In this document: piece after piece, positions 8,436 to 60,647 of the stretch
Numbering within the stretch: position 1 is the first letter of the stretch
Layout: every line of letters starts with the position of its first letter
Origin: Micromonospora acroterricola
GTDB taxonomy: Bacteria; Actinomycetota; Actinomycetes; Mycobacteriales; Micromonosporaceae
Direction: 5' to 3'
Length of the DNA stretch: 64,000 nt
Assembly: GCF_003172955.1 (NCBI RefSeq)
Contig: NZ_QGKR01000162.1
Location: 1 to 64,000 of the forward strand
Position numbers and translations under genes: made by a program
The notes under the pieces: generated by a model
Told to the model about the DNA's origin: nothing
What the model saw: the letters and a program-made list of their open reading frames with translations, nothing else
Databases searched by the model: none

Positions 8436-14207
<5,772 letters not shown>

Positions 14208-56048: not shown

Positions 56049-56212
56049 TCCTACTCCTCCAATGGTTCTTGATGTCCGCCAGCCCCCGCTCGTGCGGCCG
56101 GAAGGCGACCGCGACTGAGGGGTGGCTCTTGCCGCGAAGTTGTCTGGGGGCCGGCCGCTGGATCGCACGGACCATCGCCAGCCCGAGGTGCCCCGGGCGG
56201 GTGGCTACCCGC

Positions 56213-57115
56213 TCAGCTCTGGGGAACCAGGCCGGCGTCGACCACGTACTCCCCGCCGTGCACGGCCTCGAACTCGCCGCTGGCGACGAGCAGGGTGGGC
56301 TCGAACTGGTACGACGTCACCATGTCCGAGTCGGTGGCGTCGTCACCGACGTCGGCGACGGTCCGGCCGTACGCGCCGGACGCTTCCAGCCAGACCGAGT
56401 ACAGAAGCTCAGTGCGGGCGGTAATCGACCACGTTCCGTCCGGGTTGACGGCGGCAGAGCCGCCGCCGACGGCCCGCCCCTGCCGAACGCCCAGACGCAC
56501 GTTCAACACGCCGTCCGGGCCTCCGGCTATCGCCGGCTCACCCTCCTCGCGCTGCCCGTCCCGGTCCAGGTCGTACCAGACCGTGCCGCGGATAACGCAG
56601 GTGCCGGAGATCGCAACCGTGACGGAGCCGGTGTTGTTGTCGGTGTTCGCCTCCCGCCTCTGCGGGACGATGGTCGTGGTGATCGGCACAGCGCTGCCCG
56701 GCGTCGCGCCGGCCACGACGAACGGCACGTGCAGCCGGATGGCCCGACCGCCAGCCGCCAGTTCCGGGTACGCGCACGTGTAGCTCGTCGTGCTCGCCAC
56801 CGCGCAGGCCCAGCCGCTGTCAGTGCCGGAAGGGCTCGTCGTCCGTAGCCCCGAGGGCACCGAGACAGTGACGCTGACCGGGTCCGACCCGCCAGCGCCG
56901 TAGTTCCGGACGTCGATCTCTGCGTTGAAGGTCTCGCCCTCCGCAGGGTTCAGCACGTCGGTCATCATGAGGTCGACGGCCAGATCGGGCTGCAGTTTCC
57001 CGGCCGCCACCGCGTCGGCCGGAGCGAGCACCGCCGCGCCCCCGACAAGGGCGAGGGCGGTGAGCGAGCTGGAGAAGGTACGTCGAATCGAGCGGGACAG
57101 GGAACGAGGTCGCAT
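56213..57115 (-). CDS. Secreted protein with DUF11-like and SdrD_B-like domains
   Basis: A 300-aa exported protein. Signal peptide at about residues 1-38 (RRTFSSSLTALALVGGAAVL then ADAVAAGK). Residues 40-170 form a DUF11/conserved-repeat-like beta-sandwich (VDLMMTDVLNPAEGETFNAE, VSVPSGLRTTSPSG, TTTIVPQRREANTDNNTG). Residues 180-300 resemble an SdrD_B/Cna-B domain beginning GTVWYDLDRDGQREEGEPAI. There is no LPxTG sorting signal, so it is probably released or loosely wall-bound. ATG at 57115 has GAGGAACCT upstream. Confidence 0.8.
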   Translation of the reverse strand: MRPRSLSRSIRRTFSSSLTALALVGGAAVLAPADAVAAGKLQPDLAVDLMMTDVLNPAEGETFNAEIDVRNYGAGGSDPVSVTVSVPSGLRTTSPSGTDSGWACAVASTTSYTCAYPELAAGGRAIRLHVPFVVAGATPGSAVPITTTIVPQRREANTDNNTGSVTVAISGTCVIRGTVWYDLDRDGQREEGEPAIAGGPDGVLNVRLGVRQGRAVGGGSAAVNPDGTWSITARTELLYSVWLEASGAYGRTVADVGDDATDSDMVTSYQFEPTLLVASGEFEAVHGGEYVVDAGLVPQS

Positions 57116-57342
57116 AGGTTCCTCAGGTCGCAGGTGACGACCCTCGCGAAGGGCAAGGGACGCCCTGGAGATCAACTGGCTCCACTCATCCGGCGTCGTC
57201 GGTCTGGCCGGCGTTACATATGAGGGACAGCGCTCGCCGGATGGAGAGCATCGTCGGCGACGGGGGGACGACTCGGGCGAGCTCCGGCCGCCATCGTTGA
57301 TGTCAACGAGTGATGTCAGCCGCTGCTGTCGGCTCCCCTGCC

Positions 57343-57600
57343 GGCATGACCGTGCACTCCGACAGGGGCAGTCGATTCCGGTCCCGCAAAGTACGTCAAA
57401 GCGTTGGGGCGTAACGGCCTGGTCGGCTCGATGGGCCGCGGCGGCACCTGCGGTGACAACGCCGCGATGGAGTCGTTCTCCGCCCTGCCGCAACGCGACG
57501 TCCTGGAGCGGCAACGCTGGACCACCCGGATCGAACGGACCTACCACCGCCGACGACGCCAACGACGCCTCGGCCGACTCACACCGATCGCATTGAGACG
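57343..57600 (+). mobile_element. Decayed 3' remnant of an IS3-type transposase
   Basis: The sequence encodes GMTVHSDRGSRFRSRK (second catalytic Asp region of IS3-type DDE transposases). After a one-base insertion it reads YVKALGRNGLVGSMGRGGTC then GDNAAMESF (catalytic Glu region). RWTTR is then joined directly to [20 protein letters not shown], with the usual 10-12 residue spacer deleted. The first catalytic Asp half and the left end are missing. It cannot transpose. Confidence 0.75.
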
Positions 57601-58001
57601 GTCAAAAGGCCCGCACACGCGGCCTGAACCACCCAACCCCGCGAGTCAACCAAACTCGGTGCGTCCACCACCTCTTTCGTCTTGAATTCCACCATTCGCG
57701 AGGTCATCGGGGTGAGAAGATCGCCCCGGTTCACCGTTCCACCCTTCCGGGTGACGGCCCCTGACTGATCATCCGTGAGCGATTGGCTGATCGGAGTCGT
57801 CTCGCTGCCTCCTTGATACGACTTTCATTGACTTTCATGTAACCCACCCCCCAACTGGCCGCCATTCCAGACCGCTACTTCGGCCCCAACGGCCCTTCGC
57901 CACTAGCCCGCGCCGAGAATAGGTGGCAGTCTCTAGGTCACAAGATCTCCTGTTCCATCCTTTGCGTGATTTCACGCATCCACCACTCATCGGAGGCATT
58001 C
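57601..58001. other. Non-coding region after the IS remnant with leader of the Cys-rich ORF
   Basis: About 400 bp with no supported gene. It contains a 10-bp direct repeat, TGACTTTCAT-like, at about 57822-57840 and ends with GGAGG at 57992-57996, the ribosome binding site of the cysteine-rich ORF. Base composition is less GC-rich than its neighbours. Confidence 0.4.
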
Positions 58002-58115
58002 ATGTCGTGTGCGTGTGTCAAGGCCGGCCGGTCGAAGTGCGCGTGGTGCAAGGAGGCCGAGAAGATGGGCCGCCCCGCCTCGGGGCACAACTGCCAGTGG
58101 GGCCGTTGCTCCTGA
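58002..58115 (+). CDS. 37-aa cysteine-rich peptide
   Basis: ATG at 58002 opens a 37-codon frame ending at TGA 58113-58115. It has a near-ideal ribosome binding site, GGAGG, ending five bases before the ATG. The peptide starts MSCACVKAGRSKCAWCKEAE and ends GHNCQWGRCS, with six cysteines (positions 3, 5, 13, 16, 31, 36) plus one His. CxC and CxxC spacing suggests a small metal-binding (metallothionein- or zinc-ribbon-like) protein; a modified-peptide precursor is less likely, since no maturation gene is seen nearby. No family recognised. Confidence 0.6.
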   Translation: MSCACVKAGRSKCAWCKEAEKMGRPASGHNCQWGRCS

Positions 58116-58196
58116 GTTGACACGTTGATCACCGCCTGGCCCGTTCAAGCGATCTGGCGGACAGGCGGTGGACACTCTCCCGGAAGGTTGTTGGTG

Positions 58197-58706
58197 ATGA
58201 ACGTACTGGGGAACCCCGCGTTTTCGCAGTTGTTGGACTCGGCGCCGACCCTCGGCCGGGAACGGCGGCAAAACCTCGACTGGGACGTGTACGGCGAGGC
58301 ATTGAACGACGCCGGCTTCTCGTTGACCGACGTGCGCACGTTGAGCTGGGCGAGGTTCAGCGAGGTCGGCGTAGGCGCCTTGACCGAAGGGACCTCGCTG
58401 ATCGCCGTCTTCAACAACGGCATCTTCGAGAGTCTCGGCAAAAGGCGACTAATGAGCCGCAGCCCGAAGTACCGCGCCATCGACTTTGAACAAGTGGCGG
58501 GATACGGCGACGTGGACCACGTTGTCGAGCACCACAGGATCTTCAAGTACTGCATCGAGTTTCAGGGTGCCGGCAGCATCCTGCTGGGTCGCCTCGAGTG
58601 GCACGTCCAAGGCAAGCGGTTTGGGGACAACCGACAGGAGATCATGGCCACGGCCCGTGAGAGGGACCGCGTCCTGTCGGTCATCAACGAGATTTCGGGA
58701 AACTAG
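58197..58706 (+). CDS. Hypothetical 169-aa protein, PH-like
   Basis: The product begins MNVLGNPAFSQLLDSAPTLG and has GTSLIAVFNNGIFESLGKRR, YRAIDFEQVAGYGDVDHVVE and a C-terminal helix (ATARERDRVLSVINEIS). Two beta-rich halves followed by a helix resemble a pleckstrin-homology-like fold, but this is only a structural impression. The ATG at 58197 was chosen because the upstream frame reads as non-coding. It follows the cysteine-rich ORF by 81 bp. Confidence 0.65.
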   Translation: MNVLGNPAFSQLLDSAPTLGRERRQNLDWDVYGEALNDAGFSLTDVRTLSWARFSEVGVGALTEGTSLIAVFNNGIFESLGKRRLMSRSPKYRAIDFEQVAGYGDVDHVVEHHRIFKYCIEFQGAGSILLGRLEWHVQGKRFGDNRQEIMATARERDRVLSVINEISGN

Positions 58707-58977
58707 CACCCACGCCGTTCAGTGGCTCAAGCGACAGTGCTGAGAGATCCGACCTACCAGGTGGGGCGTGGGCCGCGATGCAGTCAATGTCATGGAGGCT
58801 ATTGTCATTAGCGCTGATTCGACGGCACCGGGCATACGGAGACATGGTGTCACTATTGGCTCTGCTAGACAGGCGCTCACACACGGAGCAAAGATTGGAG
58901 AATCGGGGAGGGGAAAAAGTCTTCGTCACCACAGCCGCCCGCGCATCCGATTGCACGATAGAAAGATAGGCCCTCCG
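58707..58977. other. Gap with no supported gene
   Basis: A 271-bp stretch of lower GC content between two hypothetical genes. No ribosome binding site with an adjoining frame, no hairpin and no repeat was found. Confidence 0.4.
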
Positions 58978-59415
58978 ATGTTCCAGCTTGATATCGATCG
59001 CAGCGCCCGGGGCGCACCGGTGGAAACACTGCATAAAATCGTCGGCGGCTGGGGACTCGTGATCACCGTGCAGAGCTCCGGCGATCTTGAGGCCATCATA
59101 GGCGCCATCGTCGGGGCGGCACCGCGCCTTTCCGAAGATCACGAAGTGCGAGCTGACGGCTTGATCGTGAGCCGCGTAGGCTATTACCGCATCTTTTGGG
59201 GTGCCGTGAGATATCCCGCCGGAAGCCTGGCCATCCTGGCTCCGCTGCCGTTACACGAGAACCAAGACCCACGGGATTGGATCCGGCACTTCAGGATCGA
59301 AGTGCTCGATCCAATCCAAGCCCTGTCACACCAAGGCTATGCAGTAGGCGGGGGCGGAGACGGAATGGTGACTGAACGCGAGTTTTGTCAAGCGTTCAAG
59401 ACCGCCTACGTGTGA
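58978..59415 (+). CDS. Hypothetical 145-aa protein
   Basis: The product starts MFQLDIDRSARGAPVETLHK and contains GYYRIFWGAVRYPAGSLAIL, PRDWIRHFRIEVLDPIQALS and a C-terminal helix (TEREFCQAFKTAYV). Mixed hydrophobic and charged composition suggests a real soluble protein. Codon choice is less GC-biased than in the neighbours, as in the two genes before it, which may mark a transferred block. No family recognised. Confidence 0.6.
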   Translation: MFQLDIDRSARGAPVETLHKIVGGWGLVITVQSSGDLEAIIGAIVGAAPRLSEDHEVRADGLIVSRVGYYRIFWGAVRYPAGSLAILAPLPLHENQDPRDWIRHFRIEVLDPIQALSHQGYAVGGGGDGMVTEREFCQAFKTAYV

Positions 59416-59486
59416 GTACGTGCTCGACAGGGCTACAGCGTCGCGCACGGGCCGTTCATGGCATCGCATCCCCTCGTGAACCGCGG

Positions 59487-60443
59487 TCAGAATGTGGCGA
59501 TCGGGTTGACCGGGCTGCCGGACGTACCGGCGAAGCGAACCGGCGCGACTGCGAGGTGGAAGTCCCACTGGCCGAGTTCGGCAGCCGTCGTCGCGCACGC
59601 CTCCAGGTCGCAGTTGTCGAGCAGCCACAGACCCATCGCGACGAGGCTCACGGCGTGCACCGGCATCAACACGTCTTCGTACCCCGACGGCTGAACGTCC
59701 TGGGGGGTGTCGGCGCCGATCAGCGCGACCTCGCGTTCCCGCAGCCACGGCAGGCAGGAGGCATGCCAGCCGGCCTGCGTGAAACCGCTGGCCGCACCGG
59801 CCTCGTGCCGCGCGCGGCCATAGCCGGTCCGCAGGAGTACCGCATCGCCGGCGCGCACCCGCACACCCTGCCGACGCTCGGCCTCCTCGAGATCGTCGGG
59901 AAACACACCCTGCCCCGGTTCCAACCACGGCACATCGCGGACCCGCGCGATGTCCAGCAGGACACCACGCGTGATGATCCCATTCGCCGCCGCCGTGACG
60001 GCCGCCCACGCCGATCCCGTTGCGGCGTCGACCAGCGAGTGCGACCGCCCGTTGTACATCCTGCCGTCCCAGAAGATGTGGCACGGCGAGTCGACGTGGG
60101 TGATCGTGTTGCCGTGGAACATGATGCCGAGCCGCTCGTTTGAAAAGCCCCAGCGCCGGTCGGCGTGGAAGGCGGCCACGGGCATGTTCTCGGCACCGGG
60201 CATGTCGGCGGCGCACGGGCACGTCGTCGTCGACCGCTCCATGTCGTCCGGTACGGCAACCTCCCAGGCGCAGGACACGCTCCTGCCGTGGCGCACGGCC
60301 CGCGCCGCCGCCAGCCGGACGTCGTCGGTGATGTGGTTCAGGGTCCCGAGCTCGTCGTCGTCGCCCCACCGTCCCCAGTTCGACAGCGTGTTGAAGTAGC
60401 CGAGCACGTCGTCCTGTGTGGGCATTGGTCGCCCTGTCGTCAT
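59487..60443 (-). CDS. Cyclase family protein (kynurenine-formamidase-like metal hydrolase)
   Basis: A 318-aa member of the cyclase (PF04199-type) family. The metal-binding motif HxxTHxDxPxH appears as HGNTITHVDSPCHIFWDG at about residues 104-121. WGRWGDDDELGTLNHITDD near the N-terminus and VHAVSLVAMGLWLLDNCDLE near the C-terminus are typical of the longer bacterial cyclase-like proteins of about 310-330 aa. These enzymes hydrolyse amide or lactone bonds with a divalent metal. ATG at 60443. The DUF1028 gene lies upstream on the same strand, 204 bp away. Confidence 0.9.
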   Translation of the reverse strand: MTTGRPMPTQDDVLGYFNTLSNWGRWGDDDELGTLNHITDDVRLAAARAVRHGRSVSCAWEVAVPDDMERSTTTCPCAADMPGAENMPVAAFHADRRWGFSNERLGIMFHGNTITHVDSPCHIFWDGRMYNGRSHSLVDAATGSAWAAVTAAANGIITRGVLLDIARVRDVPWLEPGQGVFPDDLEEAERRQGVRVRAGDAVLLRTGYGRARHEAGAASGFTQAGWHASCLPWLREREVALIGADTPQDVQPSGYEDVLMPVHAVSLVAMGLWLLDNCDLEACATTAAELGQWDFHLAVAPVRFAGTSGSPVNPIATF

Positions 60444-60647
60444 CCCAGCATCGACTCCTCCGTCACGCGATTCGAGGCACCGCAGGTAGGCTATCCCGCC
60501 GCTGTATCGAAGACCGCAATGACTGGTCGGGGCCACCCCGCCGTTGCCGCATCTCATCAACGGGGTTGTCACCCAGGCGACGGTCAGACGTTGAAGCGGA
60601 TCCAAGAGTCGCTGTCCGGCCACCAGCCAACCTCATTCGACGCCTGC

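What the first reader, a model, noticed from the sequence alone, without database searches (positions are those of the whole stretch)
58002..58115. Unlisted 37-aa peptide with six cysteines and an ideal ribosome binding site
GGAGG five bases before the ATG, CxC and CxxC motifs and a His make a small metal-binding protein likely. It sits in a lower-GC block with two other unknown genes (58197-58706, 58978-59415), just after an IS remnant, so the block may be foreign. It is shorter than usual gene-calling cut-offs.
Basis: partly seen in the sequence, partly recalled or inferred. Interest (0 to 1): 0.6.

Follow-up and report, generated by a model that had tools for sequence, protein, structure and literature searches.

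The report
Conserved six-cysteine mini-protein of actinomycetes
A 37-residue gene, short enough to be overlooked, belongs to a real and strongly conserved but rare bacterial protein family with six fixed cysteines and a fixed histidine; it is probably a metal-holding mini-protein, and its job is unknown.

Summary
Window 58002-58115 encodes a 37-aa peptide behind GGAGG, and it is a real protein gene: congener G158 encodes the identical peptide with 12 coding differences, all synonymous third-position changes, while flanks beyond 15 bp upstream and 5 bp downstream are unrelated. I found 16 copies in 15 actinobacterial genomes; all six Cys and the His are invariant in the 15 distinct sequences. 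Pfam, NCBIfam, PHROGs, PDB sequences, phage, plasmid and viral-contig searches gave nothing credible. It is rare (2 of 160 genus genomes, 7 of 354 family genomes, own genome included), so probably an accessory, horizontally moving gene. It recurs beside uncharacterised families: an ~90-aa probable membrane protein, 'DUF-A', and the window's 169-aa protein. A Cys-responsive leader peptide is unlikely as a general role: the next gene is convergent in 9 of 14 loci, though co-directional in the window. Best reading: a cytosolic, basic mini-protein folded around zinc or another soft metal, serving as a small adaptor or regulator in accessory modules. Metal binding and function are inferred, not shown.

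The parts
58002..58115 (+). 37-aa six-cysteine mini-protein gene
57992..57996 (+). GGAGG ribosome binding site, five bases before the ATG; TCATCGGAGG is shared with G158 in otherwise unrelated upstream DNA
57963..57978 (.). Perfect inverted repeat TGCGTGA-TT-TCACGCA upstream of the gene; possible operator. Of the other 15 copies only L054 has perfect repeats with 7-base arms in its 120 upstream bases, of other sequence
58130..58170 (+). Inverted repeat / hairpin after the stop, terminator-like without U run; fold not better than shuffles (z -0.53)
58197..58706 (+). 169-aa protein of unknown family; its only homologue in the other 14 peptide-bearing genomes lies about 1 kb downstream of a peptide copy in G584 (about 41% identity)
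58978..59415 (+). 145-aa protein of unknown family; homologues (64-68% identity) in two congeners sit just downstream of a CHAT-TPR protein gene
57404..57685 (+). IS3-family transposase C-terminal remnant at the left edge of the low-GC block

Best explanation
Shown: 58002-58115 is a protein-coding gene under strong purifying selection, a member of a so far unnamed, rare, patchily spread actinobacterial family with the pattern M-x-C-A-C-x7-C-x-W-C-K-E-A, then after about 9 residues H-x-C-Q-x-G-x-C. Inferred: the product stays in the cytosol (no hydrophobic leader by eye), is basic, and folds as one mini-domain around zinc or another thiophilic ion held by the six cysteines and His29. It is carried between chromosomes as a single gene or with small accessory modules. 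Least certain: that it works as a metal-stabilised adaptor or regulator for neighbouring partners (the ~90-aa probable membrane protein, DUF-A, the 169-aa protein).
For: Identical protein with 12 of 12 synonymous differences in G158. 16 copies in 15 genomes; 6 Cys and His invariant in 15 of 15 distinct sequences, also outside the CxWCKEA stretch that seeded the genome scan. Non-homologous flanks and rarity argue for horizontal transfer. Membrane-protein gene ending less than 50 bp upstream in L049, L055 and L058, and 1.0-1.3 kb upstream on the same strand in L052. DUF-A occurs in 5 of 15 peptide genomes, in 4 of these within 3.6 kb of the peptide. The 169-aa protein occurs in 2 of 15, both times about 1 kb or less downstream. 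Model mean pLDDT 79. 2-3 acidic against 6-10 Lys/Arg/His residues per copy.
Against: No metal evidence; Foldseek finds no fold match and pTM is only 0.45. No partner is universal, and DUF-A occurs in 17 of 250 family genomes of which only 2 (G204, G244) have the peptide beside it. The partner families were picked because they were seen next to the peptide, and three of the four membrane-protein cases are Actinoplanes/Paractinoplanes. A weaker 169-aa homologue in G040 has no such peptide in the 15 kb fetched. One copy (G584a) has no Shine-Dalgarno-like run.
Confidence: 0.6

Rival explanations
1. A cysteine-responsive leader peptide (attenuator) whose translation controls the downstream gene, like the polycysteine short ORFs of mycobacteria.
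For: Short, Cys-rich, with an inverted repeat between it and the co-directional 169-aa gene in the window; the downstream gene is co-directional in 5 of 14 loci, the window among them. Cysteine-rich regulatory sORFs exist in mycobacteria (PMC9094748, passages seen, citing Canestrari et al. 2020, which I did not read).
Against: Downstream gene convergent in 9 of 14 loci with one called (crude gene caller, ORFs of 60 aa or more). Whole peptide conserved including W, K, E, A, H, Q and G while synonymous sites vary. Cysteine codons spread, not clustered. The window hairpin is no better than shuffles. No cysteine-metabolism gene recognised by eye among the neighbours listed.
Confidence: 0.03
2. A metallothionein-like buffer that soaks up copper, zinc or cadmium.
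For: Six Cys plus His in 37 residues with CxC and CxxC motifs.
Against: No Pfam metallothionein match (8 members scanned). Invariant Trp, Lys, Glu, Ala and Gln suggest one fixed fold. No metal-transport or metal-regulator gene recognised by eye among the neighbour families shared between loci.
Confidence: 0.12
3. A component of a defence, conflict or toxin-antitoxin type module (effector, antitoxin or regulator).
For: Patchy accessory gene. In L051 the BREX genes BrxC/PglY, PglZ and BrxD run divergently from 167 bp upstream. L052 has a RAMA-domain protein matching candidate PDC-S14, a sub-threshold integrase match and an Mrr-type nuclease. L057 has NB-ARC proteins and a sub-threshold SEFIR match, L055 an NB-ARC-TPR protein, L059 an HSP70 plus VWA pair at 7-10 kb.
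Against: Other loci lie among ordinary metabolic, regulator or NRPS-like genes by eye (G158, L049, L050, L053). No control for how often such genes lie near random actinomycete loci. PADLOC was run on 10 neighbours only, chosen as likely defence genes. Peptide not found in phages, plasmids or viral contigs.
Confidence: 0.2
4. A precursor of a modified or disulfide-bonded secreted peptide.
For: Short, Cys-rich, sporadic; one locus (L050) lies near NRPS-like genes by eye.
Against: No maturation enzyme or exporter recognised among neighbour families shared between loci (no dedicated search was made). No signal-like N-terminus by eye. Conservation covers the whole chain.
Confidence: 0.06

Closest known systems
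Bacterial metallothioneins (recalled: SmtA, PmtA, mycobacterial MymT)
   Same: Very small, Cys-rich, CxC and CxxC motifs
   Different: No profile match; fixed non-Cys residues suggesting a single fold
Cysteine-rich regulatory sORFs of mycobacteria (PMC9094748 passages; Canestrari et al. 2020 not read)
   Same: Short Cys-rich ORFs in actinobacteria
   Different: Ours is conserved as a whole protein and is followed by a convergent gene in 9 of 14 loci
Small structural zinc-finger or ribbon proteins (general, recalled); weak resemblance to the eL34 ribosomal protein (E 0.5)
   Same: CxxC plus further Cys/His in a short basic chain
   Different: E-value at chance level and over 14 residues only; no fold match

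Membership tests
Any named family in Pfam, NCBIfam or PHROGs | Profile match at a credible score | tested here: not met
   window peptide none; of 8 (Pfam, PHROGs) and 15 (NCBIfam) members scanned only weak hits (best E 0.011, PSI_integrin, one member)
Metallothionein | Match to a metallothionein profile | tested here: not met
   (Pfam only, 8 members)
Metallothionein | Binds several soft metal ions, metal-induced | not testable with these tools
   needs protein
Cys-responsive leader peptide | Lies upstream of and co-directional with a regulated gene | tested here: not met
   convergent in 9 of 14 loci; co-directional in 5, the window among them
Cys-responsive leader peptide | Regulation by cysteine supply | not testable with these tools
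   needs reporter assay
Small metal-binding (zinc-finger-like) protein | Invariant Cys/His set | tested here: met
   6 Cys and His29 in 15 of 15 distinct sequences
Small metal-binding (zinc-finger-like) protein | Known zinc-binding fold | tested here: inconclusive
   pLDDT 79, pTM 0.45, no Foldseek match
Small metal-binding (zinc-finger-like) protein | Binds metal | not testable with these tools
   needs protein
Anti-phage defence component | Physical association with defence genes above background | tested here: inconclusive
   no background control

The most novel reading that the evidence does not exclude
The family is the smallest part of an undescribed, horizontally moving actinobacterial system in which a 37-residue metal-bound mini-protein works with an ~90-aa membrane protein and interchangeable soluble partners (DUF-A, the 169-aa protein, DUF-B), possibly as a sensor or switch in cell defence or kin conflict.
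Probability: 0.2. Interest if true: 0.75.

Novelty: new variant of a known kind. Interest (0 to 1): 0.55.

Why it matters
It is a well-supported protein family, short enough to escape usual gene-calling cut-offs, with seven invariant potential metal ligands and recurrent uncharacterised neighbours in a phylum rich in antibiotic producers. It is a compact, directly testable target: metal content, NMR structure, partner binding.

Tried and rejected
Rejected: chance ORF (synonymous-only divergence). Plasmid hit H1 in Streptomyces sp. NBC_00513 (E 0.3): no such ORF there. Weak genome matches left out of the family: 17 other genomes at E 0.006-0.1 (none examined one by one; G015 recurs); six genomes at E 2e-5 to 0.003 (G654, G380, G475, G488, G624, G711), of which I looked at two (G654, G488) and neither reads as the peptide, and did not examine four. 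Leader peptide: see rivals. A downstream terminator hairpin as a family feature: 13 of 16 copies folded, 4 with z below -2.4, the window's not significant. The upstream inverted repeat as a family operator: not shared. A PH-like fold of the 169-aa protein was my early impression; the single-sequence model failed (pLDDT 35), so it is not claimed. A simple empty site: in G094 both flanks are present, about 15 kb apart and not in the order of a simple insertion. Rfam on 57500-59600: no match. Relatives of the 169-aa protein and of DUF-A in viral contigs: none confirmed; of these and DUF-B in plasmids: none. Literature (listings only unless said): no paper holds CACVKAG, WCKEAE or CAWCKEA; nothing in the listings looked like a description of this family; passages of one paper were seen. 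Limits: the viral-contig scan used one pattern, C[AM]WCKEA, and the genome-contig scan one, C[AMR]WCKEA[EV], so divergent members would be missed; the genome search scores only some first-look candidates per genome (up to 19-22).

Full report
Observation. The ORF at 58002-58115 reads as described: 37 residues, six cysteines, one histidine, GGAGG with five bases before the ATG. A Cys-rich short ORF by itself proves little in high-GC DNA: a crude scan lists 10 ORFs of 25-60 aa with six or more cysteines in this window, the peptide's frame among them, and about 8% of the window's 518 ATGs have as long a Shine-Dalgarno-like run. Conservation had to decide.

Conservation. Among 160 genomes of the same genus, two hold a full match, the window's own and G158; a third, partial match (G015, E 0.006, 39%) was not counted. 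G158 encodes the identical 37 residues. The aligned 134 bp are 88% identical, and nothing else in 20 kb around G158's copy matches the 64-kb window. All 12 coding differences are synonymous and at third positions. If changes fell at random on this sequence the chance would be 7e-9 to 7e-8; NG86 gives dN 0.0 and dS 0.85. The similarity runs from 15 bp before the ATG to 5 bp after the stop.

Family. In the family-level search 7 of 354 genomes match at E 0.003 or better, own genome included. In a class-level draw of 394, the window's genome and G584 (two copies) are clear matches and six weaker ones were left out. A phylum-level draw of 346 with the profile of A2 gives the window's genome only, at E 1e-4. 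A scan of the genome collection (84,980 species), seeded only by C[AMR]WCKEA[EV], gives 12 loci: Actinoplanes couchii, Streptomyces sp. H27-H5, Micromonospora pattaloongensis, Modestobacter, Saccharothrix deserti, a Patulibacter MAG, Actinoplanes sp. DH11, a Micrococcales MAG, Glycomyces salinus, Paractinoplanes deccanensis, Lentzea and Streptacidiphilus carbonis. Five of these are G202, G338, G244, G305 and G204 (contig lengths agree). In all, 16 copies in 15 genomes. The 15 distinct sequences keep C3, A4, C5, C13, W15, C16, K17, E18, A19, H29, C31, Q32, G34 and C36. The CxWCKEA part is biased by the seed, but C3, C5, H29, C31 and C36 are not, and the searches used no such seed. The window peptide is 84% identical to that of Actinoplanes couchii and 76% to a Streptomyces one, but 70% to that of Actinoplanes sp. 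DH11, which fits horizontal transfer, though 37 residues are few. A Shine-Dalgarno-like run of five or more bases precedes 10 of 16 copies; five copies have four, which 20-40% of ATGs in their loci also have, and one copy has two.

Known families. There is no credible match in Pfam, NCBIfam, PHROGs or the sequences of solved structures, in phage or plasmid records (the one plasmid hit is not an ORF) or, with one pattern, in viral contigs. The model from 11 sequences has mean pLDDT 79 and pTM 0.45, with two short helices; Foldseek finds nothing in the PDB.

Surroundings in the window. The gene lies in a low-GC block between an IS3-type remnant and a gene at 59448-60529 found in 47 of the other 159 genus genomes; the left flank (56200-57248) is found, in whole or part, in 18 (my count, which scored two places per genome). 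Within about 57.67-59.45 kb the only matches are the peptide in G158 and the 145-aa gene in G082 and G005. There the 145-aa gene follows a gene for a CHAT-TPR protein. This supports a composite, acquired block; a clean empty site was not found.

Partners. A simple gene caller plus homology searches show recurrent neighbours. First, an ~86-92 aa protein that looks like a membrane protein by eye ends less than 50 bp upstream in L049, L055 and L058 and lies 1.0-1.3 kb upstream on the same strand in L052; L060 is marginal (E 0.024). Second, DUF-A: present in 5 of 15 peptide genomes and in 4 of those within 3.6 kb, but also in 17 of 250 family genomes, where a pattern scan of the DUF-A loci (about 1.5 kb either side) showed only the peptides already known. 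In L055 and L058 the order is DUF-A, membrane protein, peptide. Third, the window's 169-aa protein: among the other 14 peptide genomes only G584 has it, about 1 kb downstream of one peptide copy and between its two copies; a weaker homologue in G040 has no peptide in the 15 kb fetched. DUF-B lies beside the peptide in G158 and 7.3 kb away in L060. Ten neighbours, these families among them, had no Pfam match at E 0.1. The families were chosen because they were seen next to the peptide, so the linkage is suggestive, not a blind test.

Defence-like surroundings exist in some loci: divergent BREX genes 167 bp away (L051), a RAMA/PDC-S14 protein and an Mrr nuclease (L052), NB-ARC proteins (L055, L057) and an HSP70-VWA pair (L059). 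Others look ordinary by eye, and no background rate was measured.

Mechanism. As a general role the leader-peptide idea fails on orientation: the next gene downstream is convergent in 9 of 14 loci, co-directional in 5, the window among them (crude gene calls), and whole-protein conservation does not fit a codon-counting role. Seven invariant potential ligands in 37 residues, no hydrophobic N-terminus by eye, a basic chain and fixed W, K, E, A and Q residues favour a cytosolic metal-held mini-domain. I hold the protein gene near certain, metal binding about three in four, and an adaptor or regulator role with its neighbours about one in three; these odds are judgement.

Noticed in passing
window 58978-59415; L101:6147-6581; L102:6655-7092: A 145-aa unknown protein in the window has homologues in two congeners directly downstream of a CHAT-TPR (caspase-like domain) protein gene; in the window it lies without that partner.
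   Followed up: partly
L046:8128-8235 and 11400-11510: Genome G584 carries two diverged copies of the mini-protein in opposite orientation about 3.2 kb apart, flanking the 169-aa homologue, near a TrwC-type relaxase gene.
   Followed up: partly
L051:1989-9834: BREX genes (BrxD, PglZ, BrxC/PglY) run divergently from 167 bp upstream of the mini-protein gene in Micromonospora pattaloongensis.
   Followed up: partly
L051:10240, L052:9067, L060:4653, L026:8884: Four neighbours start with a similar MGLFSR/MSFFAR N-terminus, and two more with MGLxDH, among 227 ORFs called; perhaps a shared targeting start.
   Followed up: no
window 57963-57978: Perfect inverted repeat TGCGTGA-TT-TCACGCA just upstream of the ribosome binding site, possibly an operator; this sequence was not seen upstream of the other copies.
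   Followed up: partly
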